The position numbers were made by a program, and so were the translations under genes. Positions 42,110 to 64,000 of a stretch of 64,000 nucleotides of DNA are shown here, piece by piece. Within the stretch, counting starts at the first letter, position 1. Each line of letters starts with the position of its first letter. Source of the stretch: Bacteroidia bacterium (GTDB lineage Bacteria; Bacteroidota; Bacteroidia; Cytophagales; Cyclobacteriaceae); the NCBI GenBank assembly GCA_030425425.1, contig JAUIAO010000025.1:1-64000 (forward strand). Reading direction: 5' to 3'. Below the pieces are notes generated by a model that worked only from the letters and a program-made list of their open reading frames with translations, was not told where the DNA came from and searched no databases.

Positions 42110-43423
42110 ATGCGGACATCTATAGTTTCACTTTTATTAATCCTATTGATATCATCAGCTTGTACCACAGATATGAATGATAACCAGCAGGAAAATAACC
42201 TGCAACCAATAAAAGTTGAGATCAGACAGGAAAATGGAGCATATCAGATCTACAGAGGAGGCGAACCATATTCATTTAATGGCGCAGGACTGGGTGGTGA
42301 TATTCGATCACTGAAACGTCATGGAGGCAATTCATTCAGAACATGGGGAGTGGGAAACAGACGTCAGTCTGGCATGGAAGTACTGGATGACGCGCAGGCT
42401 CATGGCATGACCGTAACTATGTGTATCTGGGTTAGTCCGGAAAGACATGGAATGGATTATAACAACGAAGAACAAGTCGCTGAGCAATTTGAACGAATCA
42501 AAGAAGAGGTATTGGCGCACAAAGATCATCCCGCATTATTGATGTGGTCTATTGGCAATGAATTAAACCTGAACTATACCAATCCAAAAGTATATGAAGC
42601 AGTAAACGAAATTTCAAAGTGGATACATGAAGTAGATCCATATCACCCTACCACTACCACACTGGCATCTATGAATGCCGATGTAGTGAAAAATGTGATG
42701 GAATATGCGCCGGACTTGGATGTGCTGAGTGTGCAGGTGTATGGTGATTTGTTTGCACTACAAGAAATGATAGAAGCATCAGGCTGGGAGAAGCCGCTTA
42801 TGGTTACAGAATGGGGTACAATCGGTCATTGGGAAATGCCATCCACAGAGTGGGGAGCACCAATAGAGCAAACAAGCACCGAAAAAGCTGCTACCTACCT
42901 CAAAGGTTATAACAAATCAATAAAGCCATTTACAGATCAAATAATCGGAAATTATGTTTTTCTCTGGGGGCAGAAACAAGAACGGACTCCTACCTGGTAC
43001 GGTTTGTTTCTTGAAGGCGGAGAGGAAACAGAATCTATAGATGTGATGCACTACATCTGGAATGGTGAATGGCCAGAAAACCGAACTCCTAAGCTCAATG
43101 AGATGACTTTGGATGGAAAGCAATCCCGAGACAATGTTTATCTACAGCCAGATCAAGAGTACCCTGCAGCGGTAAATACTTACGATTATGAAAACGATTC
43201 GCTGATCTACAAGTGGGTGATTATGAGAGAAAGTGAAGCTACTGAAGAAGGTGGCGATCGCGAAGAGATTCCAGAACATATTGGCACCATTGAGAGTGCT
43301 ACTTCATCGGAAATCACCTTGACCACTCCTTCTGATGAGGGAGCCTATAGACTATTCGTATATGTGTTCGATGGGAACAACCATGCTGCACATGCCAATA
43401 TTCCATTTTTTGTCAGAAAATAA
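42110..43423 (+). CDS. Clan GH-A glycoside hydrolase lipoprotein, GH2- or GH158-like, family uncertain
   Basis: 437 residues. A lipoprotein signal (ISSACTTD) leads to a TIM barrel starting YSFNGAGLGGDIRSLKRHGGNSFRTWG. Catalytic candidates are E151 (LLMWSIGNELN) and E234 (LMVTEWGTIGHWE), 83 residues apart. The last 100 residues look Ig-like (AVNTYDYENDSLIYKWVIMRES ... GAYRLFVYVFDGNNHAAHANIPFF). The barrel alone resembles GH2, but the usual jelly-roll and sandwich domains are missing. The layout of barrel plus C-terminal Ig-like domain, and the 83-residue spacing, recall what I remember of GH158 endo-beta-1,3-glucanases; this is unverified. Neighbours on both sides act on beta-glucan. It overlaps the next gene by one base. 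Confidence 0.75.
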   Translation: MRTSIVSLLLILLISSACTTDMNDNQQENNLQPIKVEIRQENGAYQIYRGGEPYSFNGAGLGGDIRSLKRHGGNSFRTWGVGNRRQSGMEVLDDAQAHGMTVTMCIWVSPERHGMDYNNEEQVAEQFERIKEEVLAHKDHPALLMWSIGNELNLNYTNPKVYEAVNEISKWIHEVDPYHPTTTTLASMNADVVKNVMEYAPDLDVLSVQVYGDLFALQEMIEASGWEKPLMVTEWGTIGHWEMPSTEWGAPIEQTSTEKAATYLKGYNKSIKPFTDQIIGNYVFLWGQKQERTPTWYGLFLEGGEETESIDVMHYIWNGEWPENRTPKLNEMTLDGKQSRDNVYLQPDQEYPAAVNTYDYENDSLIYKWVIMRESEATEEGGDREEIPEHIGTIESATSSEITLTTPSDEGAYRLFVYVFDGNNHAAHANIPFFVRK

Positions 43424-44940
43424 TGAAAGCTAACATTTTCCATATCGCTTCATTCTTCACCTTGAGTGCTTGCTGTATCTTTTTGAGTGCTTGTTCGGTT
43501 GAAAATAAATCTGAGATGAATCTCCAAATTTTCGAAACTTCTGCTGCGGGAAACAAAATGCAACCGCTTGAATTTTCTGCAATAGAAAAAACACCAGATG
43601 CTGTGATTTCGGTAGATCCGCAGGTGAAATTCCAAACGATCACCGGCTTTGGAGGATCGTTTACTGAAGCGAGTGCCTATCTATTGAATCAATTGAGTCA
43701 GGCAAATCGTGATGCTATTCTCAAAGCGTATTTTGGTGATGATGGAGCACGATATTCCCTCACCAGAACGCATATCAATTCTTGTGATTTTTCATTGTCT
43801 AACTATTCATATGCCCCCGTGGCGGGTGATAAAGAGTTGGAGCATTTCAGTATTGATGAAGATCGTGATGACATCATTCCAATGATCAAAGATGCAATGG
43901 CCGTATCTAAAGACGGATTCAAGATTATCTCTTCTCCATGGACAGCTCCACCTTGGATGAAAGACAACAATAGTTATGTGGGTGGAAAACTACTTCCTGA
44001 GTATTACCAGACCTGGGCCAATTTCTTCGTGAAATATTTGGATGCCTATGAAGCCGAAGGTATCGATATCTGGGCAGTAACAGTAGAAAACGAACCACTT
44101 GGTAACGGGAATAACTGGGAAAGTATGAACTTTTCTCCAGAGGAAATGACTGATTTTGTTGTGAACTATATGGGCCCGACATTTCAGCAAAATGAAGTTA
44201 AAACCAAGATTTTTGGGTATGACCAGAATAGGGGAGAGGAGCTCAAACATTGGGCGGATGTGATGTACGCCAACGAAGAGACATCTAAATACTTTGATGG
44301 TATGGCTATTCACTGGTATGCCAGTACGTATGATTATTTTCCAGAGTCCCTTACTCACACACATCAAAAAGCACCAGGTAAACATCTGATCAACTCAGAA
44401 GCTTGTGTAGATGCAGAAGTTCCCAAATGGAATGATGATTCATGGTACTGGTCTAAAGAAGCTACGGACTGGGGCTGGACATGGGCTCCGGAAGATCAGA
44501 AATATCTCCACCCGAAGTATGTACCTGTGTACCGATACGCCAGAAATATCATTGGTTCTCTCAACAATTGGGTGGATGGTTGGGTTGATTGGAATATGGT
44601 GCTGGATCGTCAGGGTGGTCCCAATTGGTTTAAAAACTGGTGTGTAGCTCCTGTAATAGTAGATCCGGAGGCTGATGAAGTGTATTTCACGCCATTGTAT
44701 CATGCGCTTTCTCATTTCAGCAGGTATATCAGACCGGGTGCGATCAGAATTGGGTTTGAAAACTCATCTGAAACATTGATGAGCACCGCTACTCAGAATC
44801 CAGATGGGAGCATCGTCATAGTGTTGCTGAATATGGAGGAACAACCGCTAACCGTTGATATCAGGTTGGAAAATCAAAATAAAAAAATTCGCATTGATGG
44901 ACAAGCGATTCAGACAATCGTGATTCCTGCAGCGAATTGA
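43423..44940 (+). CDS. GH30 family beta-glucosidase/beta-1,6-glucanase lipoprotein
   Basis: 505 residues with a lipobox (LSACSVENK). The TIM barrel opens with QTITGFGGSFTEASAYLL. Acid/base E224 is in VTVENEPLGNGNNWESM and nucleophile E326 in LINSEACVD; the C-terminal beta sandwich follows (SHFSRYIRPGAIRIG, IVIVLLNMEEQPL). This is GH30 (subfamily 1 or 3 type). In laminarin loci such enzymes remove beta-1,6-linked glucose branches or cut beta-1,6-glucan. Its start codon overlaps the preceding stop (taatg), so the two enzymes are translationally coupled. Confidence 0.92.
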   Translation: MKANIFHIASFFTLSACCIFLSACSVENKSEMNLQIFETSAAGNKMQPLEFSAIEKTPDAVISVDPQVKFQTITGFGGSFTEASAYLLNQLSQANRDAILKAYFGDDGARYSLTRTHINSCDFSLSNYSYAPVAGDKELEHFSIDEDRDDIIPMIKDAMAVSKDGFKIISSPWTAPPWMKDNNSYVGGKLLPEYYQTWANFFVKYLDAYEAEGIDIWAVTVENEPLGNGNNWESMNFSPEEMTDFVVNYMGPTFQQNEVKTKIFGYDQNRGEELKHWADVMYANEETSKYFDGMAIHWYASTYDYFPESLTHTHQKAPGKHLINSEACVDAEVPKWNDDSWYWSKEATDWGWTWAPEDQKYLHPKYVPVYRYARNIIGSLNNWVDGWVDWNMVLDRQGGPNWFKNWCVAPVIVDPEADEVYFTPLYHALSHFSRYIRPGAIRIGFENSSETLMSTATQNPDGSIVIVLLNMEEQPLTVDIRLENQNKKIRIDGQAIQTIVIPAAN

Positions 44941-48452: not shown

Positions 48453-49334
48453 ATGTCTGCGAGATATCAAATCATGGCATTGGCAGGTCAGGACCTGTCT
48501 AGCAAAACTGAGGCAGAATTATCAGAGATATTCGAGCAAGTTTTGAAAAAAGGAATGCATGGAATCTGTATAAGTCCATATGAGGAGGGGCAGAAACCAG
48601 GCGATCAACTATCTGAAGAACAGATCAGAAGGAGATTGGAGATTTTACAGCCACATACCAAATGGGTTAGGACTTTTTCATGCACAGAAGGTAATGAATT
48701 GATACCGCGTATAGCCAAAGAATATGGGATGAAAACGCTCGTGGGAGCCTGGCTTGGTAAATCAGCTGAGATCAATCAAAAGGAAGTGGACGGACTGATA
48801 GAGGTGGCGAATGCAGGCCATGCTGACATAGTAGCAGTGGGCAATGAGGTAATGTACAGAAAAGATCTTACCGAAAGTGAATTAATCCAATTCATCAAAT
48901 ATGTAAAAGAAAGAGTAAATGTGCCAGTAGGATATGTGGATGCATATTATGAGTTTGAGCATAAACCTGAGATTACCGAATTATGTGATGTGGTATTAGC
49001 CAATTGTTATCCATATTGGGAAGGCTGCAGTCAGGAGTATTCGCTGCTGTATATGAAAGACATGTATCGAAGAGCTCAGAGAGCTGCCAACGGTAAAAAG
49101 GTGATCATTACTGAAACTGGATGGCCGGATGTCGGGCAAGTATTTCATGGAGCGGTTCCTTCCAGAGAAAACGCCATGAAATATTTCATTAACGCACAAT
49201 CCTGGGCCGAGGAAGAAGGAATAGAGATGTTTTACTTTTCGTCGTTTGATGAGGCCTGGAAAACAGCCGACGAAGGAGATGTAGGAGCCTATTGGGGAAT
49301 CTGGAACAGCAAGGAAAAACCAAAGTTTTTTTAA
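48453..49334 (+). CDS. Cytoplasmic GH17-like glycoside hydrolase
   Basis: 293 residues, no signal peptide. A compact TIM barrel with IVAVGNEVMY (E132 in the GNE motif), CDVVLANCYPYWEGC and VIITETGWPDVGQ (E221), then MFYFSSFDEAWK. This is a minimal GH17-type core. Members normally act outside the cell on beta-1,3-glucan; absence of a leader here implies action on imported oligosaccharides or a transglycosylase role. It starts 11 bases after the phosphorylase gene, so the two products probably work together. Confidence 0.85.
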   Translation: MSARYQIMALAGQDLSSKTEAELSEIFEQVLKKGMHGICISPYEEGQKPGDQLSEEQIRRRLEILQPHTKWVRTFSCTEGNELIPRIAKEYGMKTLVGAWLGKSAEINQKEVDGLIEVANAGHADIVAVGNEVMYRKDLTESELIQFIKYVKERVNVPVGYVDAYYEFEHKPEITELCDVVLANCYPYWEGCSQEYSLLYMKDMYRRAQRAANGKKVIITETGWPDVGQVFHGAVPSRENAMKYFINAQSWAEEEGIEMFYFSSFDEAWKTADEGDVGAYWGIWNSKEKPKFF

Positions 49335-49388
49335 GAATCTTCTATTGCAATGTTTAATATTAGCGATTAAACCAAGAACCCTAAATTG

Positions 49389-51686
49389 ATGAAAAAGCAT
49401 TTCTCCATTTATTCTATTATTCTAATACTGTTTATGACCAGTTTTTCCTGTCAATCTTCCGGAGATCAAGAAAAGAAAGAATCAAGCATTGATGCCAGAG
49501 TAGATAGCCTTCTGGCCTTGATGACTCTGGAAGAAAAAGTAGGGCAGACTGTGATGTACACCAGTACATGGGAATTGACGGGTCCTGCACCTGCAAATGG
49601 AAATAATGCTTATCGTGCTCAGCAAATAAGAAATGGACGCGTCGGAGGAATGCTCAATGTGATCGGGGCAAAAGGTACCCGTTCCGCTCAGCAATTGGCC
49701 GTTGAAAATTCCCGGTTGGGAATTCCACTTATTTTCGGATATGATGTGATACATGGCTACAAAACCATGTTTCCAATACCGCTTGGCCAGGCAGCATCAT
49801 GGAATGCTGAGGTGGCCAGAATTGGCTCAGAAATATCAGCGATTGAAGCGGCTTCATCTGGACTGCACTGGACATTTGCACCGATGGTGGATATATGTAG
49901 AGACGGCCGATTTGGTCGGATCATGGAGAGTGCCGGAGAAGATCCTTTCCTTACCTCAGTAATGGCTAAGGCATGGGTGAACGGTTATCAGGGAGATGAT
50001 TTATCAGATCAATATTCCATCGCGGCTTGTGCCAAACATTTTGCAGGTTATGGCTTTGTAGAAGCCGGTAGAGATTACAATACGGTAGATATTTCTCCGA
50101 ATACCTTATATAATACAGTACTCCCACCATTCAAAGCGGCGAGTGATGCTGGAGTTGCCACGTTTATGAATGCATTCAATGATTTAAATGGTGTACCGGC
50201 TACAGGAAACGCTCATATTCAAAGAGATATTTTGAAAGGAGAATGGGGGTTCGAAGGGTTTGTTGTTTCGGACTGGGGTTCTATTGGAGAATTGCTCAAT
50301 CATGGATTCGCTGAGGATTCTGCACACGCTGCACAGCTGGCAATGAGAGCAGGAAGTGATATGGACATGGAATCCGAAGTGTATGAATACCACTTGCAAA
50401 AAGCTATTGAAGAGGGAAAGATCAATGAGAAATTGCTGGATGATGCAGTAAGAAGAATATTGAAAGTGAAATTCCAACTGGGTTTGTTTGATGACCCATA
50501 TAAGTATTGCAACGAAGTATTGGAAAAGAAGAATTTACTAACTGTAGAAAACCTGGAAGCATCCAGAGATGCTGCAAGAAAATCAACGGTACTTCTCAAA
50601 AATGAAAAGAACCTTCTTCCATTAAGTAAAGACGTCAATTCTATTGCGGTAATAGGGGAATTAGCTGGTAGCAAGGACGTTCCTTTGGGAAATTGGCGTG
50701 CTCAGGCCAATAAAAATTCCGCGGTTAGTTTATATGAAGGAATCAAAAATGCGCTTGGAGATCGGACGAGCGTAGAGTTTGCGGCTGGATATCAACTCAT
50801 TGAAGGAAATCGTACTTTTTTCGATACGCTCAATTTTGCCGAAGATGATGGTTCCGGTTTCAAAGAAGCAATCCGGATTGCTAAAAGAAGTGAAGTTGTC
50901 ATCATGGCGATTGGGGAAGACTGCTTTCAATCTGGCGAGGGTAGAAGTCAGGCAGATATTACGTTGAAGGGCCGACAGCTGGAATTGCTCGAAAAAATTG
51001 CTCAGGTCAATTCTAATATCATCGTAGTATTAATGAACGGCCGTCCATTAGCTATTCCTGAAGTTCATCAGATTGCGCCGGCTATCTTAGAGTCATGGCA
51101 TGCTGGTTCTGAAGCAGGTAACGCAATCGCTGATGTCATTTTTGGTGAGTACAACCCATCTGGAAAACTACCGGTTTCATTTCCTTATGTCACGGGTCAG
51201 GAGCCATTGCATTACGACCGGAAAAGTACTGGCCGGATGGTGCCGGAGAATGATCAATATGATATGGTATTCTGGTCTCATTATGAAGATGCACCTAATG
51301 AAGCATTGTATCCGTTTGGTTTTGGATTAAGCTACACCAGTTTTGAATTTAATAACCTGGAAGTGATCGCCTCCGAAAACCCTGGCAAAATCACTGTATC
51401 TGTTGGCCTGAAGAATACCGGCGATTTGGAAGGAACAGAAACGATACAGGTTTATATTCGTGATATTGCCGCGTCCATTACACAGCCAATTAAAAAGCTT
51501 GTTGATTTTAAGCAAATCCGTCTTTTGTCAGGGCAAGAGGATCGCATATCTTTTACTCTGGACTCTTCAGATTTCGGTTTCTACAATCCGCAGTACCAAT
51601 ATATAGTGGAAGATGGCAAGTTTGAAATTATGGTAGGAAACCACTCCAATAATTTAATCAGTCAAACTGTTGAAGTAAAGTTTTAA
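49389..51686 (+). CDS. GH3 family beta-glucosidase lipoprotein (BglX-like)
   Basis: 765 residues from the ATG at 49389; a TTG one codon upstream is unneeded. A lipobox (TSFSCQSSG) precedes the GH3 N-terminal TIM barrel (DSLLALMTLEEKVGQT, GYDVIHGYKTMFPIPL, KHFAGYG), with the nucleophile in GFVVSDWGS (D295). The C-terminal alpha/beta domain (STVLLKNEKNLLPL, AIGEDCFQSGEGRSQADITLKG) and a fibronectin-like domain (YPFGFGLSYTSFEF) complete the BglX layout. It is periplasmic, removing terminal glucose from beta-linked oligosaccharides. Last gene of the locus, followed by a terminator. Confidence 0.95.
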   Translation: MKKHFSIYSIILILFMTSFSCQSSGDQEKKESSIDARVDSLLALMTLEEKVGQTVMYTSTWELTGPAPANGNNAYRAQQIRNGRVGGMLNVIGAKGTRSAQQLAVENSRLGIPLIFGYDVIHGYKTMFPIPLGQAASWNAEVARIGSEISAIEAASSGLHWTFAPMVDICRDGRFGRIMESAGEDPFLTSVMAKAWVNGYQGDDLSDQYSIAACAKHFAGYGFVEAGRDYNTVDISPNTLYNTVLPPFKAASDAGVATFMNAFNDLNGVPATGNAHIQRDILKGEWGFEGFVVSDWGSIGELLNHGFAEDSAHAAQLAMRAGSDMDMESEVYEYHLQKAIEEGKINEKLLDDAVRRILKVKFQLGLFDDPYKYCNEVLEKKNLLTVENLEASRDAARKSTVLLKNEKNLLPLSKDVNSIAVIGELAGSKDVPLGNWRAQANKNSAVSLYEGIKNALGDRTSVEFAAGYQLIEGNRTFFDTLNFAEDDGSGFKEAIRIAKRSEVVIMAIGEDCFQSGEGRSQADITLKGRQLELLEKIAQVNSNIIVVLMNGRPLAIPEVHQIAPAILESWHAGSEAGNAIADVIFGEYNPSGKLPVSFPYVTGQEPLHYDRKSTGRMVPENDQYDMVFWSHYEDAPNEALYPFGFGLSYTSFEFNNLEVIASENPGKITVSVGLKNTGDLEGTETIQVYIRDIAASITQPIKKLVDFKQIRLLSGQEDRISFTLDSSDFGFYNPQYQYIVEDGKFEIMVGNHSNNLISQTVEVKF

Positions 51687-52019: not shown

Positions 52020-55000
52020 ATGAAAACACTTTCACGATTACCCCTATTGATGTTATTTCTAGTTAGTGGACTGCTCACTAATGCACAGGAAATAAAGAGA
52101 ATTTCAGAAGAAGCTTCTGCTTCCTGGAAAGAGCAGCTCGAAAAGTTATCTGAGCTTACTCAGACACCTTTGAAACAAAACCAAAGTTCGCTTGAGGCTG
52201 TGGCAACAACCCAAAACGTGGGGGCAATGGAGGTTGTCTCGATACAAGATTTGATTAAAGAATCTAAAGGTTCTTCCAAGTCTGCTGAATACAGCGAATT
52301 GAATTGGCAGAAGCAATTGGCAAAAATTGATGAAGCCAGTAAACGAAGATCAATTCAATCGAGCGGTCAGCCTCAGTTTAAATTATCAGATGGTAATGTT
52401 TCAAAAGAGAATGAACTGATCGAACAGAATAACTACTACGAGAACATGAAGCTGGCTATTCATGAAAGGAATGTACGACAGCAACAGCAGATCATACGGC
52501 AAGGAGGTAGCTTGAAAGCCAAATCAGTTTTAATGGGGCCTAAGACAGGGTTGGAGTTGGATCCGGAAACAGATAAATCCAGGGTAGAATCTCTCAGAAA
52601 ATTGGACGAGGAGAATCAAAATTTTATTCCAGACAATATCAATTCTCCTTACATAAATGTTGAAAGTCCGAAGACTGTGACCTCAAGTAATTCTACCTTA
52701 AGGTCTATCTCAAAATCTTCGATTCAACGAACATCTGCCAATTTCAGGGTTCCTCCGAGCACGGTTTATGATACGCTCGAATTTGGAATAGACAACTATC
52801 CAACCATTGATATTACAGATAATGGAGAGGGAATAGGAACAGTAACATTTACTACAGATTATATATATAGATTTATAGGGGTTTGTTTTGTGAATGATGG
52901 TGATACTTTGACCATCAACCCTGGTGTAGTCATCAAGGGGTATCAATATCAGCCAGAGCCATCCATGCTAGTCATTGCCAAAGGTGGAATGCTAGTTGCT
53001 CAAGGTACAGAATCCGCACCTATTATTTTTACAGCTGAGTCTGATGGACTTGTACCTCCGGCATCAAGTAATAATCTGGATGGTTCATACGATCAGTATA
53101 CTTCTGGTCTTTGGGGAGGAGTTGCCATTTTAGGAGATGGTTTGGTGAATAATGTCGTGGGAGAAACACATATCCTCGGAGGGGGAGAGTTTGGAGACGA
53201 TCCTCGATTTGAATTTGGTGGAGATGATTCTCAATCCAATAATGGTACGATTATGCAATATGTCTCTATCCGACATACGGGAGAATCTTCTCAGGCGTAT
53301 AATCCTGGTGAAGAACCTTTCAATGATGGGTTTGAGTCAGATACATTGTTCAATAGCAATGCACAAAATTGGAATTTCAATACAGGCGGGGGACTCGGTG
53401 AGTTCACTATTTCGGATTTTTCATTCACCGGTTCCAATGCATTGGAAGTTTTCGTTGGTGATGTAAGTACTAATGAATTGGATGTAAGTGCCGAAAGTGG
53501 TTTGATTGGTGTTACAACAGATAAAGATTACACGCTGACTTTGGAAGGTCTTAGCTATACTTCTGGCTTCTCACTCAATGTGGTGGTGATGACAGAGTTT
53601 GGTGAAGAATTAGGAAGAACTAATCACGTTTTTGATTCGGTGGAAACCTGGTCAACAGTCAATGTGTACTTCAATTCTGGAAGTAATGAAAACGTATATC
53701 TCTCTTTGAGATATTCAGACCCAAACAATGTAACATTAGTCTCTAATACAGTAGTGGTAGATGATGTGATTCTCTCTGTCCCTGAATCCTATTCATTTCG
53801 GGGTTTAGCCGATGGCTTGTCGCTGGCAGGAGTTGATGATGGAGCCATCATTGACCATATAGAAATTCTTGGTGCTTCTGGAGTTGGCCTTAGTTTTATG
53901 GGAGGTTATGTCAATGCCAGTCATATCATTACACGAAATTGTGATGATGATCTGATCGCCACTGACTATGGCTATAACGGTAAATTGCAATTCCTATTAG
54001 GATTTGAGTCAGAACAATTTAGAGCAGCACATTTTGGTAGTGGTGGTTCAGGAGCTATAGATGAAGGACGAGTATACAACGCTACTTTCATTGGTTCAGA
54101 TGAATTCGGCTTTGATGCCGTAAAATTCGAAGGAAATGCTGGTGGTCATTATTATAATTCGATTTTTCAGGGTTTCGGGGGCGGAATTAACGTGGAGTAC
54201 AAAGATACCGTTGCTTCATCGTATGACAAGTTGCAGAGTGGGGCGCTGAACATAAAGAATAACATCTTCTGGCAAGTGAATGGTGGTGATTATTTGACCG
54301 TAATAGATGAAGCAGGAACTTTCACAGGAGACATTTACACAGAACCTTCAGTAGGTGGAAATGTATATGATGATCCTCAATTGGATGGATCTTTCGTTCC
54401 ATCAAATAGTTATGTGTTTGATTTTTTCAACTCAGGTGATGATTTTTTCCAGGCTACCAGTTATGCAGGCGCATTCGAGCCGGGAGTAGACCCATGGACT
54501 TTCAATTGGTCCTACACTGGATCGAATGGTAGCGGATCTGGTGGAACAACTAGTCTTGATAATACTTTCTTAGCTGGAGACTGGAAAATAGAACCGATAG
54601 CAGGAGCTTTGGGTGTGGGGCCAACTCCTCTGGATTTATCCTATTGGTCAAATAACACGGAAGATATTTCTATCAGAGCTTGTCAGTTTGATGATATCTG
54701 GACTTTCGATGAATTTGGGAACTTGTCATTGGAACTCCAGGGACAAACCTGGTTGGAAGCTTTTCAAGGTATGAATGAAGGGTGTGGTACTCCAGTCGCG
54801 CCACATGATGGATCAGGAAACTACACCTATACAGTTTCTGATGCTTCTATCACTGTTTCCGGACAGGGGATTTATTTAGGTATTCCAAAAGTTTACAACG
54901 GCGGGGAATTAACTGCTCCTTCCGAAGCTCCTGAATCAATTACTTATGCGGTGAATGATTTCTATGAAGAAGGTGGAGTAAAAAGAATGACCCTGACAAT

Positions 55001-58000
55001 TGAGTCTAATTCAGGAGTATGGTGGACATTCAGAATGATCAATCAGGCACCTGCATCAATTGATATAGATCCTGATGATTATAATGCATTATTGGCAATA
55101 AGAGATGCCTTGGGAGGCAATCTTACCACGGAATGGAGTGAATCAGTTTCTCCTTCCAATTGGCCATATATTGAGTATTCAGGCAACAAGGTGTTTACTC
55201 TTAGTCTTGATGGTACTAACTTAAATGGAGATATACCTGTAGCGTTGACAAGTCTTGATCAATTGAATTATCTGAGTATAGGAGGAAACAATATCACTAG
55301 TCTTCCGGAGGGAATTGGTAGTTTGACCAACCTGAAGCATCTGTGGTTATGGGGAAATAATCTACAAGGATTACCGTCAGATTTCTTTGACCTGTCCAGT
55401 ACTTTGGAGATACTCGATCTTTCGCATAATACGGCTTTAGGCGAGGCTACTGCTGTTTCCATTATTCAATCATTTACAAACTTGGAGGGTTTATATCTGA
55501 GAGAACTAGGGTTGACGAGTATTCCTGATGAAATTGGTAATATTCAAAACCTAAACACTGTTGATTTTACCTATAATAGCCTGCAGTCTTTGCCAGCATC
55601 ATTTTTCACACTAGACCAGATGCAGAGATTGTATCTTGGTGATAATGATCTGGAAATGAGCTTTTCAGAGTTGTTGGTTTTTGACTCATTAAGATCAATA
55701 AACTGTTTTAGCAATAACATTTCTGGAACCCTGGAAGGTATATCCTCATTAACTAAACTGCAGGACATAAACCTCAGTGATAATTTACTTACAGGAAGTG
55801 TGCCGGCAGAAATTGGTGGATTGACCAACCTTTATTATCTGAATTTCAGCTACAATGAATTGACTGGTACATTACCACCGGAAATTTCACAGTTGATTAA
55901 TTTGAATTATTTGCTCTTACAGTGGAATGGGCTCACAGGAAGTATTCCTCAAGAATATGCAGCATTGGAGGCTCTTGTAAGGTTTTACATTTTTGAAAAT
56001 GATCTATCAGGAGAAATTCCGGATATTTTCGGGAATTGGTATCAAATTGAGCGTGTTGGATTATCCGATAACCAGTTTACTGGTGCGGTACCGTCTACGT
56101 TGGCTACCAGACAGTCTTTACAGCAACTATATGTAAATAATAACCAGCTGTCAGCTTTTCCTGAATCTGTGAACATGCCATTCCTTGGCTTGTTTTGGGC
56201 TTTTGGTAATAATTTCGAATTTGATGACCTAGAGCCGGCTTTGGTTTTATTGAACTCAGAATATATTTATGACTACCAGATTGCACCGCAGAACACTCCA
56301 GAACTTCCTGTTCAGTATATGCAAGGTGGAGAGAGGATTACGTTGGATGCATCAATAGGAGGTAGCGAGAACCATTATCAGTGGTATTACAATGGGAACC
56401 CGATAGAAGGTATCGATTCTGCCGTTTATGTAATCGAAAGTTTGGAGAAAAATTCTGTTGGATATTATTGGTGTGAGATTTCTAATGATTTGGTTACTCC
56501 AAATACTTCCCTGACCCTAAGCAGTGGAGAATGGAGATTGTTTTTCTCGGCACCTATAGCAGAATCAGATTCTTTAGCACTGGTAGAGATCTATGAAGCA
56601 ACAAATGGTGAAAACTGGAATAATGCCTACAATTGGTTAAATGCGCCAGTGATGAGTTGGGAAGGTGTATTCATAGAGAATGAAAGAGTTACAAAGCTCG
56701 ATTTATTCAATAAAAACTTACAGTCAGGGCTTCCTCCGGCGATTGGAGATTTAGATGCGTTGACCTGGTTGAGTTTGTATAATAATCCAAATATGGGTTA
56801 TGTGCCAGGAGAATTTTACGGTTTGACTAACCTAACCTATTTGGATTTAGATAATTCAGGTTTGAGAAGGCTATCACCGGGTATAAAAGAAATGACTAAT
56901 CTGGATACGCTATGGGTGGGTGGTAATCCATATGAAAACAAACTTCCATTGGAGTTATTTAATCTGACAGGTTTAATGACCCTTGGACTTCATAACACAC
57001 CTTTCGAGGGACAATTGCCATCTGAAATTGGTCAGTTGGTGAATTTGAAACAGCTGTGGCTAAACAATAACCCCGGAGTGATAGGTAATATACCGGCAAG
57101 TTTTGAGAATTTAACAGAACTCGAATATCTGAATATTGCGAATTCAGGCTTTACGGGAGGGTTGGAACATGTTGGAGCATTGACGTCACTAAAACAGCTA
57201 TACATATATGCTGTTCCTGCTGCTCATGATGAGTTGCCGGACAACTTTGCAAATCTTACCAACATGGAGCGATTCGGTCTTGGTTTTGCAGATTACGATC
57301 TGAGAGGATTCCCTGAGGAGATTTTCTCAATGACCAGGCTGAAGGTATTACAGCTCCCAGCCAGTAATATCAACAAAGATATCCCTGAAGGATTTGCTAA
57401 TCTGGATAGCTTGCAATTTTTGAATCTAAGAGATAATGGCTTAGGAATTACCAGTTTTGGTTTCGGTTCTTCCGTATTCTTTCCTGAAGGCATGGCTACT
57501 GATAGTTTGTATTCAGTTTACATTCAGGGAAATAACTTCGATGATATATCAATTTTCGAGAATAGCACAAAACTGACCAATTTCTATGCTTATGGTAATA
57601 AGCTGGATTTTGAAGATTTGTTGCCCTTTGAAGAGTACATGAGTACACATGAGAATTATACCCAGTATAATTTTTCTAACATGCAGCCTCTTGAGAGGCA
57701 ATATGTACAGTTGAGTCCGGGAGAAAGCATTACGTTCAATCCTCCATTATCTTATGACGAGTACACCTTTGTGGATTACTACAAAGATGAAGAGTATCTT
57801 CTTTCACTTGAAAGAGATTCTTTGGTTGGGTTCCTGCAAGCAGTTACACTAGAGAATGTTACCAACCCGGAATTTGATGGATTTTATGATGGCTATTTGT
57901 ATCATGAGATCATTTCGCCACTTTCAGATCTGACTTTACACCATGATTCTAGAAATATTCAGGTTGTTGAGTCTGTTTTGGAATCTGATTCACTGGCTTT

Positions 58001-61000
58001 GATCCAATTCAGAGATCACTTTATAGCTGATAATCCATATCATTTTGAAGGTTGGGCATTAGAAGAAGGGGATGATATTCCAGTTGAGAATTGGCCGGGT
58101 GTAGTGGCATATGGAGGAAAAGTCCTTGGGATTCAAATGAATGGATTGACTGGCACTCTACCAGTTGGAGTATTCAATCAATTTGATTCTTTGACTACTA
58201 TATATCTGGCTGATGGGCAATTGACTGGAAGTATACCGGCAGATGTTTTCACTGCGGAGATACAGTCCATTGATTTTGGAAGAAACAATTTGACGGGATC
58301 CATTCCTGAGATCAATTTAGAATCAGGAGCATTGGAATTCTTAGGGCTAGCTGGTAACCAACTGAGTGGTGAGATTCCTGCATCATTGGCAAACTTTACT
58401 GGATTATCTCAACTATACCTAGATGATAACAGGTTGACAGGAGCTATACCTTCATCATTCTTGAATTTGAGTTTCGGTGGATTTAGTGTCGATCGAAATA
58501 GATTGACAGATATACCAGCTGACTTCTTCTTTGCTTTGGAAGGTGCTTTTTATTCCAATTTCGAATACAATCAATTCGGTGCAGATGACCTGATTAACGG
58601 ATTAGGTAATAATGTATCTGCTGATTATAGCTATGCACCACAAGGTGAAGTCAGAGAGCTTACCTGGTCCGGTGACGCAAATTTAGAAGGTACTGTTACA
58701 TTACACGCTGAGCGCTTGCATTCGGCTGATCAGTTTTATTGGTTTAGACAAAACAAATACAATGGACTACCATACTATGATCAAATTGGAAGTTCTGGGA
58801 CTGATTCAACGTTTAATGTATATATAGAAGGCGAATGGGCACAAGCCAACTACATGGTCGTGGTTTTGAATTCAGAATACAAGTATGGAGAGTATCCATT
58901 CTTCTCTGAGCAAGTTCCTGTTGATCCATATGAGAAACGTTTTGCAAGCAGCCAAACAGGATCAACTTTTGATAATCCAAATGATTATGGAGCAGATTTG
59001 AGCGGGGCAGTTGGTTATCCTGATGTACCGCCTACTTTTAGTCCCTATGAATTTGAGGGACGAGCTGAGCTTGATTGGTGGAGATATGATGGATGGTGGA
59101 AGAATCCTAATGAACCGGAAGTGGATACTCTGGAATTGGGATATGATAATCCGATCCCGGTGAATTATGTGAGATTACACTCTCCGGCAAATGATTTACG
59201 GCTCAATACGCTTGTGCTTGTAGGTACGGGTGGAGAAGAAGCTGTTTTCGCTATTAATCGTTCTATATCAAATGATGAAAACCAGATCACATTCCCTAAA
59301 ACAGCCTTCCCGGTCAGCAGCGTTAAGCTGGTTCTTACCGGAGGCTCAATAGATGCTTTTGAAATAGGAGATACTGGAGTAGATGTAATAGAAAGTCCGG
59401 TGGTGGAAGATTATCATACTCCTGCAGGGCCTGACTTCTTGTACATAAACATTAATTATGCTGGATTAGCGGATTACATCGTAGTTGAGCGCAGTGTTGA
59501 TGGAGAGATTTTTGAAGTCATTGATAGTATCGGTTATGTAGGTTACTATAGAGATGATGTAGTGCCCGGCAAGTATTATTACAGAGCCAAAGCAGTATTC
59601 GAAGGTTTAGGTTTGGAATCAGATTACTCTGAAGTTGTTGAATCAGGAAACTGTGAACCGACAATTCCATCCAATAAAATTTGGAAAGGAACAAGCGTTT
59701 CCTTGGATGACTCTTCTCAACTCGCAGGTTTAACAGGTGTTCGTGATACAATGTATGTCAATGAGATTTTCAGAAATAATATTGGCGAGTATGGCGAAAA
59801 CGAGATTTCAGACTTAACAGCTGGATGGTTTGATCAGTTCTGGGAATATTACGAAGAGGGCGGATTAATTCTTGAAAAATGTGATTTGATTAAAGGCTAT
59901 AGTTACAACGGAACAGTAAGTCGTTTCGAAGGTTATTATGAGTCGGATACACTTTATATAGACTGGTGGGCTGACCAATATGGAATACACGGATTGTCTA
60001 AGTATTGGGTAATTGGAGATCAGGAGGAAGGAGATTATTTCTTGGAAAGGCCATATAGCCTGACGGCAGAATTGCAAAGTAAAAGTGCAATTTCATTGGC
60101 CTGGGAAGATAATAACCCGGATAGCACCTCTTATATCATTCAGGCCTCAGTAGATGTGGCTAGTAATTTTGAGAATATTGATATGGTGACTGCTGTTCAT
60201 CATTACAGCGCGCCAAATACTTTGGATGGTCAATATAGATTTTACAGAGTGATAGCTACTTATAATGATGAATCTACCTATCCTTCGAATGAAGTGAGCA
60301 TCATTCATAAAGCTCCTTTGTTTGATTTCGTTGAAAACGAAGTTAGTCAGGACATTAACAGGACATCATATGGAGGTTCGTGGGGAGATTTTGATGCGGA
60401 TGGAGATGATGATCTTTATGTAAGTAATGCCACTTTTGATGATTCACAGAGCGCTAAAAACTTCCTGTACGAGAATACTGGAAACGGTACCTTCAGAAAG
60501 GTTGTAGGTACTCTGGCCACAGCGGAGGATCGATTTACAAGATCAGCTACCTGGGGTGATTATAATAATGATGGTTTTATGGATATCTATTCTCCTGGTG
60601 TTTCTGAACAAATTCCTGATAGAATTTATCAGAATACCGGAAGTAGAAGTTTTGTGTTGGCCAATGAAGATGTAATGGCAGCTACTGCTCATACTTACTC
60701 TCCTTCAGAGACTGGTGTTTGGGTTGACTTGAATAATGATGGCTGGCTAGATCTTGTAAAATCTACAGGTTTTGTTCTCATGAATGATGGTACTGGACTA
60801 TTGACAGTGGGTGATGAACTGGAGATACCAGATGGTCCACTTTCTACTCTCAGATACTATTTCTGGTCAGTTTCTAATATTGACATAGACAGTGATGGTG
60901 ATCAGGATATTTATATTACCAGCGATGCTCAGAATATGCTGTTCATAAATGATGGTTCTGGAAATATGACTTATCATGAAAATGAGATTTCTAACTCTGG

Positions 61001-64000
61001 TTTGGCAAGCAGAGGTTATTCATGGGCTGATTTTGATAATGATGGCCTGATGGATTTACTCACTGGAGAGGGTGATATGAACCAGTTTGGAGTCTATAAA
61101 AATCTGGGGAATTTGGAGTTTTATTTTGTAGCACAAGGATCATCTGAAGGAGATGAGGGTTCTGACAATGGCAGTGATTTTACTGCAGGTAGAGGTTATA
61201 CTGTAGCGGATTTTAATAATGACGGAATGGTAGACGTATTGTTAAATGTAAACGGACGAGCTACGATTGCTATAAACAGAGGCTTCTTCAATTTCGAACC
61301 AATCAATATTGAAGATCAGGCATTCCCGCTGATGAACTTATTCTCTCATGTGGCAGTGGCTGATGTGAATCTCGATGGGTTTGTAGATGTTTTCTTGCCG
61401 AATCAGGATGTGGAAGGAAGTAATTTCGTGTATTTGAACAACGCTAATTCAAATTCCTGGATCACTGTTCAGCTAAAAGGTATCAGGTCTAATAAATCGG
61501 GTATTGGAGCTAGAATTACAGTAGAATCTAATTTGGACCAAGTGTTTACGCAGCAGGTTATATCTCAAAATGGACTGGGAAGTGGTAATAGTTTAGCTGC
61601 TGAATTTGGATTGGGCAGTGCCACATCAGTCAATAAAATTACCGTTTACTGGCCATCTGGAGACACTACAGTTGCTGAATCAGTAGCGACCAACCAAGTA
61701 TTTACTATGGTGGAAGTAGTGGAAGAAGAAGGCGGTGGTCCTACGGTAAACGAATCAGATTCCACGATTCTTTCGCTGCTTTATGATGAGTTGGGAGGTG
61801 AAAACTGGATCAATAATCAGGGATGGGGAGAAGGCTCTCCACTGGCATGGGAAGGCACATTCTGGAGCACACCTGATCCTGAGTCTGAAGATCTACCAAG
61901 ATTGATTTCATTGGTACTTAACGGGAATAATCTGACTGACACCATTCCGGGTGAAATTGGAGGATTGACAGAATTACAGATTTTAGATTTTAGTCAAAAT
62001 AACCTGAGTGGTAATATTCCATCCTCAATAGGTAACCTGACTAAACTCGTCAATTTATCCTTGAATGATAACCAATTAACAGGTAAGATACCGGCATCAG
62101 TTGGTACACTCGCAAATCTTGAAAACCTCGATTTGTTTAACAATAATATGTTTGGTGAACTACCTAGGACTTTAGGTGGACTTGTCAATCTGAAACAGTT
62201 TGAAATACAAAACAATGATTTCATAGGATTTGTACCTGCAGTCATTGGCACACTGAATAATTTGGAAATTCTGAGAATGGATAATAATCAATTTGAAGGA
62301 GTGTTGCCTGATGGATTGGGTGCGATGGAAAGCTTGGCAGTTTTGTATTTGAACGACAACCAGTTTACTGGAGAATTGCCTGATGATCTTGGGGATTTAA
62401 GTAACCTCTCAGAATTGAGAATATACAATAACGAATTCTTCGGAATAATACCGGCAACTTTCTCTAAGCTACAGGTACTGGAGTATTTAGATATCAGCAA
62501 TAATGATTTTGATGGTTCACTGAGTCCATTCAGCTCTTTAAGCTCTTTGTATTATTTCAATGCTAGTCAAAACCGATTCAGTTCTATGGGTGATTTCAGT
62601 GATATCACCTCTGATACAGTGATTGTGACTAATAACTGGTTGGATTTTGGTGATTTTGATGAGAACGAGCTGTTGATAATTAAAGATGTATTGGCCTACA
62701 ACCCTCAGGATTCTCTGTTCGAAGAAGAAGAGACATTACATGGTGTTGGTGTTCCAATCGACTTTGGATTTTCAATTGGTGGATCTGGAAATGTTTATAC
62801 CTGGAAGCTGAACGGAGAAATAATTGAGTCCGATGCGAATGTTTCGATCGAAGGTAGTTCTGTAAGCATCATTAGACCAGATTCACCAAATCAGGGAGAT
62901 TATGTATTGGAAATTACAAACGACAAGTATCCTGATGTGACACTTGTGACACGACCATATACTCTGAAGCTGACTTCATACGAAAGAGATAAGCAGGCAT
63001 TACTTGCTTTCAAAGCAGCCGTTCAGAATACTTATGATTTGAGCTCTTGGGTAGAAACTGATACCTTATCTAATTGGGAAGGTGTAACCTTAAGTGATAA
63101 TCCGGACAACTTACGAGTAATTGGTTTGGAACTTCCGGGTAACCCTGATGATGGAATGGTTCTAAAAGGAGCTGTACCGAGTAGTTTCGCTGACCTGTCA
63201 GGAATAGAAATTTTGAATTTGGCAGCTAACGAACTGTCTTCTTTCCCTAATATTTCTAAGTGGCCTAATGTGACATCTGTAGATCTGAGAAGAAATAGAT
63301 TGAAGTTTGCTTCTTTGATTCCAAATGTGAAACTGGGTACTAAGATCCAATATGATCCACAAAGAAGATTAGGTACTACATTATTTGATACACTTGTGGC
63401 TGGGGATGATCCGATCTTGTTCATCGAAAATCAAGGATTTGGTGCGAAGTATCAGTGGCAGTTTGGTAAATATATCCCGGGCCAATTCTACAATAATGAT
63501 GTGGAAATCTTGGATGATGCGAATTCAAGAGTATATCAGATTCAGGATTTGGATTATGATCAGATGGGAACGTATCGTGTGAGTGTAACTCATGATGAGG
63601 TGCCTGGTTTAGTTCTTCAAAGTAGAAACCAGAACATCATGGCAGCTACAACTCTTTTTGGAACTGTATATGCAGTTGATGATACCAATCCGGTTACCGC
63701 TGGAGAAGTGATAACATTCAGGAAAACACCTGTTGGTCCATTTGTACCTGAGGATACTGTGCAGATCAGTACTTCAGCTGAGTTCCAGTTTAATAATGTG
63801 GTATTGGGTGATTTCTTATTGCTGACTAAGCCAGATCGTGATGTTTATCCTATTACAACCGAGCCTGGTTCTACGGTAATAGTTGACAGTTATTATGATA
63901 CTGCCACCTTGTATGATGATGCGAAAACGCTCGAGGTAAGACAAAGAAGTAGTGGATTGGACATATTCATGAGCTATTATGAAATACCAGAGCCAATAGA
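52020..64000 (+). CDS. Giant secreted multidomain protein with beta-helix, leucine-rich repeats and FG-GAP repeats, 3'-truncated by window edge
   Basis: The frame is open from the ATG at 52020 to the window end: at least 3993 codons with no stop. Signal peptide about 1-23. Order: charged helical region (24-230); beta-helix-like region (about 260-800; LTINPGVVIKG, GTESAPIIFTA) with an inserted jelly-roll (about 437-590); a glucan-locus module (851-1008); LRR blocks (about 1019-1417, 1513-1874, 1984-2207, 3242-3557, 3652-3770) of plant type LTGSIPxxIGxLxxLxxLxLxxN; Ig-like linkers; seven FG-GAP/VCBS repeats (2771-3137; GDYNNDGFMDIY); an ASPIC/UnbV-like domain (3141-3232; GIGARITVES); and a CNA-B-like domain at the edge. 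No membrane segment is seen. It is probably a T9SS-exported adhesin or glycan-binding surface protein, but the C-terminal sorting domain lies outside the window. Confidence 0.9.
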   Translation, partial: MKTLSRLPLLMLFLVSGLLTNAQEIKRISEEASASWKEQLEKLSELTQTPLKQNQSSLEAVATTQNVGAMEVVSIQDLIKESKGSSKSAEYSELNWQKQLAKIDEASKRRSIQSSGQPQFKLSDGNVSKENELIEQNNYYENMKLAIHERNVRQQQQIIRQGGSLKAKSVLMGPKTGLELDPETDKSRVESLRKLDEENQNFIPDNINSPYINVESPKTVTSSNSTLRSISKSSIQRTSANFRVPPSTVYDTLEFGIDNYPTIDITDNGEGIGTVTFTTDYIYRFIGVCFVNDGDTLTINPGVVIKGYQYQPEPSMLVIAKGGMLVAQGTESAPIIFTAESDGLVPPASSNNLDGSYDQYTSGLWGGVAILGDGLVNNVVGETHILGGGEFGDDPRFEFGGDDSQSNNGTIMQYVSIRHTGESSQAYNPGEEPFNDGFESDTLFNSNAQNWNFNTGGGLGEFTISDFSFTGSNALEVFVGDVSTNELDVSAESGLIGVTTDKDYTLTLEGLSYTSGFSLNVVVMTEFGEELGRTNHVFDSVETWSTVNVYFNSGSNENVYLSLRYSDPNNVTLVSNTVVVDDVILSVPESYSFRGLADGLSLAGVDDGAIIDHIEILGASGVGLSFMGGYVNASHIITRNCDDDLIATDYGYNGKLQFLLGFESEQFRAAHFGSGGSGAIDEGRVYNATFIGSDEFGFDAVKFEGNAGGHYYNSIFQGFGGGINVEYKDTVASSYDKLQSGALNIKNNIFWQVNGGDYLTVIDEAGTFTGDIYTEPSVGGNVYDDPQLDGSFVPSNSYVFDFFNSGDDFFQATSYAGAFEPGVDPWTFNWSYTGSNGSGSGGTTSLDNTFLAGDWKIEPIAGALGVGPTPLDLSYWSNNTEDISIRACQFDDIWTFDEFGNLSLELQGQTWLEAFQGMNEGCGTPVAPHDGSGNYTYTVSDASITVSGQGIYLGIPKVYNGGELTAPSEAPESITYAVNDFYEEGGVKRMTLTIESNSGVWWTFRMINQAPASIDIDPDDYNALLAIRDALGGNLTTEWSESVSPSNWPYIEYSGNKVFTLSLDGTNLNGDIPVALTSLDQLNYLSIGGNNITSLPEGIGSLTNLKHLWLWGNNLQGLPSDFFDLSSTLEILDLSHNTALGEATAVSIIQSFTNLEGLYLRELGLTSIPDEIGNIQNLNTVDFTYNSLQSLPASFFTLDQMQRLYLGDNDLEMSFSELLVFDSLRSINCFSNNISGTLEGISSLTKLQDINLSDNLLTGSVPAEIGGLTNLYYLNFSYNELTGTLPPEISQLINLNYLLLQWNGLTGSIPQEYAALEALVRFYIFENDLSGEIPDIFGNWYQIERVGLSDNQFTGAVPSTLATRQSLQQLYVNNNQLSAFPESVNMPFLGLFWAFGNNFEFDDLEPALVLLNSEYIYDYQIAPQNTPELPVQYMQGGERITLDASIGGSENHYQWYYNGNPIEGIDSAVYVIESLEKNSVGYYWCEISNDLVTPNTSLTLSSGEWRLFFSAPIAESDSLALVEIYEATNGENWNNAYNWLNAPVMSWEGVFIENERVTKLDLFNKNLQSGLPPAIGDLDALTWLSLYNNPNMGYVPGEFYGLTNLTYLDLDNSGLRRLSPGIKEMTNLDTLWVGGNPYENKLPLELFNLTGLMTLGLHNTPFEGQLPSEIGQLVNLKQLWLNNNPGVIGNIPASFENLTELEYLNIANSGFTGGLEHVGALTSLKQLYIYAVPAAHDELPDNFANLTNMERFGLGFADYDLRGFPEEIFSMTRLKVLQLPASNINKDIPEGFANLDSLQFLNLRDNGLGITSFGFGSSVFFPEGMATDSLYSVYIQGNNFDDISIFENSTKLTNFYAYGNKLDFEDLLPFEEYMSTHENYTQYNFSNMQPLERQYVQLSPGESITFNPPLSYDEYTFVDYYKDEEYLLSLERDSLVGFLQAVTLENVTNPEFDGFYDGYLYHEIISPLSDLTLHHDSRNIQVVESVLESDSLALIQFRDHFIADNPYHFEGWALEEGDDIPVENWPGVVAYGGKVLGIQMNGLTGTLPVGVFNQFDSLTTIYLADGQLTGSIPADVFTAEIQSIDFGRNNLTGSIPEINLESGALEFLGLAGNQLSGEIPASLANFTGLSQLYLDDNRLTGAIPSSFLNLSFGGFSVDRNRLTDIPADFFFALEGAFYSNFEYNQFGADDLINGLGNNVSADYSYAPQGEVRELTWSGDANLEGTVTLHAERLHSADQFYWFRQNKYNGLPYYDQIGSSGTDSTFNVYIEGEWAQANYMVVVLNSEYKYGEYPFFSEQVPVDPYEKRFASSQTGSTFDNPNDYGADLSGAVGYPDVPPTFSPYEFEGRAELDWWRYDGWWKNPNEPEVDTLELGYDNPIPVNYVRLHSPANDLRLNTLVLVGTGGEEAVFAINRSISNDENQITFPKTAFPVSSVKLVLTGGSIDAFEIGDTGVDVIESPVVEDYHTPAGPDFLYININYAGLADYIVVERSVDGEIFEVIDSIGYVGYYRDDVVPGKYYYRAKAVFEGLGLESDYSEVVESGNCEPTIPSNKIWKGTSVSLDDSSQLAGLTGVRDTMYVNEIFRNNIGEYGENEISDLTAGWFDQFWEYYEEGGLILEKCDLIKGYSYNGTVSRFEGYYESDTLYIDWWADQYGIHGLSKYWVIGDQEEGDYFLERPYSLTAELQSKSAISLAWEDNNPDSTSYIIQASVDVASNFENIDMVTAVHHYSAPNTLDGQYRFYRVIATYNDESTYPSNEVSIIHKAPLFDFVENEVSQDINRTSYGGSWGDFDADGDDDLYVSNATFDDSQSAKNFLYENTGNGTFRKVVGTLATAEDRFTRSATWGDYNNDGFMDIYSPGVSEQIPDRIYQNTGSRSFVLANEDVMAATAHTYSPSETGVWVDLNNDGWLDLVKSTGFVLMNDGTGLLTVGDELEIPDGPLSTLRYYFWSVSNIDIDSDGDQDIYITSDAQNMLFINDGSGNMTYHENEISNSGLASRGYSWADFDNDGLMDLLTGEGDMNQFGVYKNLGNLEFYFVAQGSSEGDEGSDNGSDFTAGRGYTVADFNNDGMVDVLLNVNGRATIAINRGFFNFEPINIEDQAFPLMNLFSHVAVADVNLDGFVDVFLPNQDVEGSNFVYLNNANSNSWITVQLKGIRSNKSGIGARITVESNLDQVFTQQVISQNGLGSGNSLAAEFGLGSATSVNKITVYWPSGDTTVAESVATNQVFTMVEVVEEEGGGPTVNESDSTILSLLYDELGGENWINNQGWGEGSPLAWEGTFWSTPDPESEDLPRLISLVLNGNNLTDTIPGEIGGLTELQILDFSQNNLSGNIPSSIGNLTKLVNLSLNDNQLTGKIPASVGTLANLENLDLFNNNMFGELPRTLGGLVNLKQFEIQNNDFIGFVPAVIGTLNNLEILRMDNNQFEGVLPDGLGAMESLAVLYLNDNQFTGELPDDLGDLSNLSELRIYNNEFFGIIPATFSKLQVLEYLDISNNDFDGSLSPFSSLSSLYYFNASQNRFSSMGDFSDITSDTVIVTNNWLDFGDFDENELLIIKDVLAYNPQDSLFEEEETLHGVGVPIDFGFSIGGSGNVYTWKLNGEIIESDANVSIEGSSVSIIRPDSPNQGDYVLEITNDKYPDVTLVTRPYTLKLTSYERDKQALLAFKAAVQNTYDLSSWVETDTLSNWEGVTLSDNPDNLRVIGLELPGNPDDGMVLKGAVPSSFADLSGIEILNLAANELSSFPNISKWPNVTSVDLRRNRLKFASLIPNVKLGTKIQYDPQRRLGTTLFDTLVAGDDPILFIENQGFGAKYQWQFGKYIPGQFYNNDVEILDDANSRVYQIQDLDYDQMGTYRVSVTHDEVPGLVLQSRNQNIMAATTLFGTVYAVDDTNPVTAGEVITFRKTPVGPFVPEDTVQISTSAEFQFNNVVLGDFLLLTKPDRDVYPITTEPGSTVIVDSYYDTATLYDDAKTLEVRQRSSGLDIFMSYYEIPEPI
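54568..55044 (+). other. Glucan-locus module inside the giant protein
   Basis: This segment (GDWKIEPIAGALGVGPTPLD ... IRACQFDDIWTFDEFGNLS ... GIYLGIPKV ... WWTFRMIN) aligns without major gaps with module B of the lipoprotein at 31615 (GNWKLSPEDGGVGVGP ... RACMFDDVFTFDDAGNFS ... AFIGLPKV ... FWRFILVSE) and more loosely with its module A. Conserved cysteines (RAC, then GCGTP/ACGTP) and aromatics are shared. Confidence 0.85.

What the first reader, a model, noticed from the sequence alone, without database searches (positions are those of the whole stretch)
52020..64000. Giant secreted protein mixing plant-type LRRs, beta-helix and FG-GAP repeats in one frame
A single stop-free frame of at least 3993 codons carries five separate leucine-rich-repeat blocks of the plant GxIPxxLGxLxxL type. 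Ig-like spacers and a seven-copy FG-GAP/VCBS array with an ASPIC/UnbV-like domain interrupt them. Each family is known alone in Bacteroidota; this combination is not one I recognise. It suggests a very long surface fibre for binding glycans or other cells.
Basis: partly seen in the sequence, partly recalled or inferred. Interest (0 to 1): 0.75.

Follow-up and report, generated by a model that had tools for sequence, protein, structure and literature searches.

The report
Giant surface protein beside beta-glucan genes
A marine bacterium makes a huge secreted surface protein from many binding modules, encoded right next to its genes for eating beta-glucan (an algal storage sugar), which suggests, without proving it, that the protein helps the cell hold on to such sugar or to the cells that contain it.

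Summary
The frame ends 661 bases past the window and encodes 4213 aa (466 kDa) with a T9SS type A sorting domain. It is no assembly chimera: residues 1013-4213 (LRR-Ig x3, an unassigned region, seven FG-GAP motifs, ASPIC, LRR-Ig x2, tail) are colinear in giants of three other Marinoscillum genomes. The N-terminus (beta-helix-like repeat with an inserted domain, then one more domain) is a variable add-on. New here: in 6 of 6 held Marinoscillum genomes the slot between the GH3 gene of a beta-1,3-glucan locus and TetR/ABC1-kinase genes holds one to three members of this LRR/T9SS family; the full giant sits there in three, elsewhere in a fourth. Residues 846-1012 are 47% identical to a domain of the locus's own glycan-binding-type protein. 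Best reading: a surface capture protein for beta-glucan or algal cells; binding is inferred, and a general adhesin is nearly as likely. FG-GAP + LRR + T9SS frames also occur in Imperialibacter and Cyclobacteriaceae MAGs. New variant of a known kind.

The parts
52020..64000 (+). Giant T9SS protein gene (4213 aa; runs on to contig position 64661, outside the window)
52020..52754 (+). Signal-peptide-like start and charged N-terminal region, residues 1-245
   Evidence: read by eye; aligns over its length (cov 0.96) only to the G004 giant
52755..53309 (+). Beta-helix-like repeat, first part, residues 246-430
   Evidence: relatives in 53 of 59 genomes, counting both parts; alignment A3; no Pfam match for this sequence
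53310..53810 (+). Domain inserted in the beta-helix-like region, residues 431-597; unidentified
   Evidence: absent from the 14 relatives aligned; no Pfam match
53811..54554 (+). Beta-helix-like repeat, second part, residues 598-845
54555..55055 (+). SGBP-type domain, residues 846-1012, 47% identical to copy 2 in the neighbouring locus's own PKD protein
55056..56543 (+). LRR block 1 + Ig-like, residues 1013-1508
56544..57953 (+). LRR block 2 + Ig-like, residues 1509-1978
57954..58844 (+). LRR block 3 + Ig-like, residues 1979-2275
58845..60353 (+). Region without Pfam match, residues 2276-2778 (discoidin/FN3-like by eye only), conserved in all four giants
   Evidence: (residues 2276-2770)
60354..61499 (+). 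FG-GAP array, seven DxDxDG motifs, residues 2779-3160
61500..61724 (+). ASPIC/UnbV domain, residues 3161-3235
61725..62963 (+). LRR block 4 + Ig-like, residues 3236-3648
62964..63662 (+). LRR block 5 (LRRNT_2 cap) + Ig-like, residues 3649-3881
63663..64000 (+). Start of the conserved tail (carboxypeptidase-regulatory-like stretch, below Pfam cut-off, then T9SS type A sorting domain), residues 3882-4213, ending at contig 64658
51717..51745 (+). Terminator-like hairpin (12 pairs, T-run) between GH3 and the giant, suggesting a separate transcript
   Evidence: pattern match only
28435..31353 (-). Regulator with Y_Y_Y and LuxR-type domains, divergent from the locus
31615..33432 (+). PKD domain + two copies of the SGBP-type domain; presumed surface glycan-binding protein of the locus
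33506..34609 (+). GH16 (matches also the SKN1/KRE6 beta-glucan model)
34632..37763 (+). SusC
37776..39326 (+). SusD
39395..40831 (+). MFS sugar transporter
40844..42094 (+). GH17-like (26.4 bits, just below the Pfam cut-off of 28.2)
42110..43423 (+). GH2-type TIM-barrel protein
43423..44940 (+). GH30
48453..49334 (+). GH17
49386..51686 (+). GH3, last enzyme gene before the giant

Best explanation
The gene encodes a T9SS-exported, surface-attached giant that serves as an accessory capture protein of the adjacent beta-1,3-glucan (laminarin-type) utilisation locus. Shown: the frame, the sorting domain, the conserved core and the conserved place beside the locus. Inferred: after export and removal of its sorting domain it stays on the cell surface; the five LRR-Ig units and the FG-GAP propeller form a long display arm; variable N-terminal modules (here a beta-helix-like region and an SGBP-type domain related to the locus's own binding protein) hold beta-glucan or glucan-bearing algal cells near the GH16/GH17/GH30/GH3 enzymes and SusCD.
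For: T9SS type A domain and SprA in the genome. Locus genes for GH16, GH17, GH30, GH3, SusC/SusD and a sugar transporter. The slot between GH3 and TetR/ABC1K is filled by family members in 6 of 6 Marinoscillum genomes, while none of the 8 stretches (17-18 kb) from other genera that carry the SGBP-type domain, 7 of them SusCD-GH16 loci, shows such a gene. The SGBP-type domain is shared with the locus's own binding protein, and in those 7 loci its gene lies between SusD and GH16; its 18-row profile matches the solved 'PKD domain protein' 7kv5 at E 1.7e-4. Published: SGBP-B of Bacteroides uniformis binds beta-1,3-glucan with high specificity (PMC7157763, passages).
Against: The SGBP-type domain is in this giant only; the three other giants lack it. 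One giant (G001) lies away from the locus, though beside another SusC. A terminator-like hairpin separates GH3 from the giant, so co-transcription is doubtful. The fold model of the domain was mediocre (pLDDT 68.6) and its best Foldseek hits were weak avidin/lipocalin-like barrels (best E 0.014; 7kv5 not among the 50 rows shown). A single-sequence search with the locus's own PKD protein finds only its PKD part in the PDB up to E 0.1, not 7kv5. No binding or expression data.
Confidence: 0.45

Rival explanations
1. A general adhesin of surface-living Cytophagales that binds other cells or surfaces; its place beside the beta-glucan locus is an inherited neighbourhood without a shared function.
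For: Matches to its LRRs lie in many open frames of 1000 to over 5000 aa across Cytophagales; paralogues with the same tail lie elsewhere in the same genomes; SusC lies within the fetched stretch at 4 of 8 other Marinoscillum family loci looked at and at none of 9 from other genera (some of these only 5-16 kb), so a general tie to glycan loci is not shown; the giant of G001 is away from the beta-glucan locus.
Against: The slot is kept in 6 of 6 genomes although the gene set inside it changes, and this giant carries a domain that, in the other genera found, sits in SusCD-GH16 loci in 7 of 8 cases.
Confidence: 0.4
2. A receptor or signalling function based on the plant-type LRRs.
For: LRRs resemble plant receptor ectodomains.
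Against: Pfam finds no kinase or other signalling domain; the T9SS tail predicts export; the similarity is one of repeat consensus. Transmembrane segments were not tested.
Confidence: 0.05
3. Assembly artefact joining two genes.
For: The gene is very long and repeat-rich at the protein level.
Against: Core colinear in three other genomes; no DNA direct repeat of 30 bases or more found; GC 0.37-0.42 over the gene and its flank; the frame is unbroken.
Confidence: 0.01

Closest known systems
SGBP-B of Bacteroides beta-1,3-glucan loci (PMC7157763; 7kv5-7kv7)
   Same: Profile-level similarity of one domain; loci with SusCD, GH16 and GH3
   Different: Here the domain is one of about twenty in a 4213-aa T9SS protein; SGBP-B are, as I recall, lipoproteins of a few hundred residues (the 7kv5 chain has 290)
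[quoted passage not shown]
   Same: A Cytophagales glycan-locus binding protein
   Different: Two-domain outer-membrane protein; not compared by sequence here
LRR/FG-GAP T9SS proteins of Imperialibacter (2974 aa, L059) and Cyclobacteriaceae MAG HetDA_MAG_MS6 (1636 aa, L057)
   Same: FG-GAP, ASPIC, LRR and T9SS tail in one frame
   Different: Fewer LRR blocks matched, no beta-helix-like or SGBP-type domain matched, and no beta-glucan locus genes in the fetched stretch (22 kb and 11 kb)
Plant LRR receptor ectodomains (FLS2, GSO1)
   Same: LRR consensus of the GxIP type
   Different: No kinase found; no evidence of common function

Membership tests
T9SS type A cargo | C-terminal sorting domain over the curated cut-off | tested here: met
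   TIGR04183 28.4 bits, cut-off 23; PF18962 39.3 bits, cut-off 27
T9SS type A cargo | N-terminal signal peptide | tested here: inconclusive
   Hydrophobic start read by eye; no predictor run
T9SS type A cargo | T9SS translocon in the genome | tested here: met
   SprA, nearly full length, at G000:C10; other T9SS parts not searched
[quoted passage not shown]
   47% to a domain of the locus's own PKD protein; profile hit to 7kv5, E 1.7e-4, but no hit by single sequence; that 7kv5 is an SGBP-B is recalled
[quoted passage not shown]
   Model pLDDT 68.6, no PDB match at E <= 0.001
[quoted passage not shown]
   needs protein
[quoted passage not shown]
   The giant has a T9SS tail and lies past GH3 behind a terminator-like hairpin; hence not filed as an SGBP-B
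Right-handed beta-helix protein | Beta-helix fold | tested here: inconclusive
   Mostly strands in the model, but pLDDT 37.7; among 15 aligned members only a sub-threshold Pectate_lyase hit in 2 (E 0.044 at best)

The most novel reading that the evidence does not exclude
Marinoscillum beta-glucan loci carry a third, so far undescribed class of capture protein: giant T9SS proteins with plant-type LRR-Ig arms and exchangeable N-terminal binding heads, in a genus-wide variable slot (often with an S74-chaperone fibre protein), which acquire heads from the locus's own SGBP-type gene.
Probability: 0.3. Interest if true: 0.65.

Novelty: new variant of a known kind. Interest (0 to 1): 0.45.

Why it matters
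Laminarin is a major algal storage glucan in the sea (general knowledge), and how surface-living Bacteroidota get hold of it beyond SusCD and small binding proteins is poorly known. If this giant captures glucan or algal cells, it would tie at least one of the many unexplained giant LRR proteins of Cytophagales to a substrate and make their function testable in a cultured genus.

Tried and rejected
Assembly chimera: rejected. Confirming the beta-helix by structure: only two sequences in the alignment, pLDDT 37.7; no PDB sequence match for the 15-row profile up to E 1; no Pfam or NCBIfam family beyond stray weak hits. Confirming the SGBP fold: weak, unrelated barrels on top. General tie of the tail family to SusC: 4 of 8 other Marinoscillum loci and 0 of 9 from other genera, not convincing; the SusC search scored 42-44 matches per genome and its list was cut, so no statistic was made. 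How common the ASPIC-LRR junction is: of 390 genomes sampled from the order, 100 have some match at E <= 1e-15 to residues 3091-3420; in the rows listed (the list was cut) most cover either ASPIC or LRR alone, two genus members (G000, G001) cover nearly the whole query, and two others (G233, frame of 1641 aa; G247, 2614 aa) span part of ASPIC and the LRRs, so the junction is not limited to the genus. NCBIfam hits to LRR models such as XopAC, XopAE, XopL are far below their cut-offs and reflect LRRs only. Literature: eight searches; in the listings, titles and opening lines shown, none describes such a protein; the papers listed were not read beyond the passages cited.

Full report
The frame. 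Window 52020-63998 is open. The contig is 79,199 bases long and the frame stops at 64661, giving 4213 aa, about 466 kDa, pI 4.1, with 9 cysteines. It ends in a T9SS type A sorting domain. SprA, the T9SS channel, is in the genome.

Domains. Five LRR blocks, each followed by an Ig-like stretch; seven FG-GAP calcium-type motifs with an ASPIC/UnbV domain between LRR blocks 3 and 4; a carboxypeptidase-regulatory-like stretch (20.3 bits, below its cut-off of 32.3) before the sorting domain. Only one Ig-like stretch gives a Pfam hit and it is below its cut-off here (Ig_3, 25.8 bits against 30); the equivalent passes it in the three orthologues. The other Ig-like stretches and all block limits are my reading. 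Residues 2276-2770 match no Pfam family; 'discoidin' and 'FN3' are by eye. Residues 246-430 and 598-845 form one repeat region whose relatives, many of them in frames of 400-700 aa, occur in 53 of 59 genomes searched (own genome included); 55 of 59 have some match to the N-terminal query, but G006 and G036 match only residues 854-1009. The 167 residues between the two parts are an insertion absent from the 14 relatives that I aligned. I could not prove the beta-helix fold.

Relatives. Genus: Marinoscillum, from contigs of identical length in named records: G001 = M. furvescens DSM 4134, G002 = M. pacificum MRN461, G004 = MAG MSM7; G003 = a MAG titled Rickettsiales, evidently mislabelled. The window's own species and G005 are not named. 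Full giants occur in G000, G001, G004 and G005 (4 of 6 held genomes), with residues 1013-4213 colinear, 26-70% identical per block (Ig2 and 2557-2690 lowest) and seven FG-GAP motifs in each. N-termini differ: G004 has the beta-helix-like region without the insert and without the SGBP-type domain; G001 and G005 have neither. In a tree of the last 565 residues of 19 proteins, giants and the 1025/1044-aa forms group together (100/100), but the four giants are not resolved as a clade of their own; the 618-626-aa forms make another clade (100/100); the 1025-aa form of G004 is sister to the G004 giant (100/99), a local duplication or conversion.

The slot. In 6 of 6 genomes the space between the GH3 gene of the beta-glucan locus and TetR and ABC1-kinase genes holds tail-family genes: one in G000 (the giant), three in G005, three in G004, one each in G001, G002 and G003. 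The giant of G001 lies on another contig, a few genes from another SusC. In 5 of 6, not in the window's genome, a protein with an S74-chaperone domain (Pfam in four; by 39% similarity in G005) is encoded directly before one of them, 0-12 bases away or overlapping by one base. The window's genome has two S74 genes on other contigs. The 8 stretches from other genera fetched for the SGBP-type domain show no gene of this LRR family.

The SGBP-type domain. Residues 846-1012 are 47% identical to the second copy in the locus's own PKD protein (window 32947-33429), against 22-37% for the 16 other rows aligned, which suggests domain exchange within the locus. Outside the genus, 8 of the searched genomes have a match to it; in 7 of these 8 its gene lies between SusD and GH16, and the eighth (G043) has no SusCD in the stretch. 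In the window and in G004 the order differs: the gene comes first, before GH16 and SusCD. The 18-row profile matches 7kv5 at E 1.7e-4, the only PDB hit up to E 1. I recall 7kv5-7kv7 as Bacteroides SGBP-B structures (Tamura et al. 2021; paper not held; title seen in a reference list). BuSGBP-B binds laminari-oligosaccharides from the trisaccharide up (PMC7157763, passages). Against this: the fold test did not confirm it (pLDDT 68.6, top Foldseek hits weak avidin/lipocalin barrels), and a single-sequence PDB search with the locus's PKD protein found only the PKD part.

Other occurrences. FG-GAP, ASPIC, LRR and T9SS tail in one frame also in Imperialibacter (2974 aa) and a Cyclobacteriaceae MAG (1636 aa); a 3035-aa frame of another MAG has FG-GAP, LRR and tail, with no ASPIC hit at E <= 1e-5. 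Large LRR frames are frequent in Cytophagales, and two genomes outside the genus have matches that span part of ASPIC and the LRRs.

Judgement. A general adhesin remains nearly as likely. Of algal Bacteroidota, one paper reports LRR proteins and their transcripts in Dyadobacter and suggests a part in interaction with plant immunity (PMC9430724, passages); another mentions them in passing (PMC9606717, one passage). The comparison with CHU_1279 rests on passages of PMC12016534.

Noticed in passing
L049 3755-20000 and L050 (G000:C2, to the contig end): A second giant frame in the same genome, at least about 6115 aa and reaching the contig end, with matches to the beta-helix-like and FG-GAP/ASPIC regions.
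   Followed up: partly
L047 12206-14680; L048 9368-12697; L044 14025-16502; L039 14278-17112: Proteins with a C-terminal S74 endosialidase-chaperone domain, encoded directly before an LRR/T9SS gene in the slot, suggesting a trimeric fibre made together with it.
   Followed up: partly
window 45007-48441: 1144-aa protein in the beta-glucan locus with no credible Pfam match, 52% identical to a protein beside another genus's locus (L068 13612-17064).
   Followed up: no
G116:C14: A 10,615-aa open frame with an LRR match in another family of the order.
   Followed up: no
L056 / G003: MAG record titled Rickettsiales bacterium that is evidently a Marinoscillum-like Cytophagales genome.
   Followed up: partly
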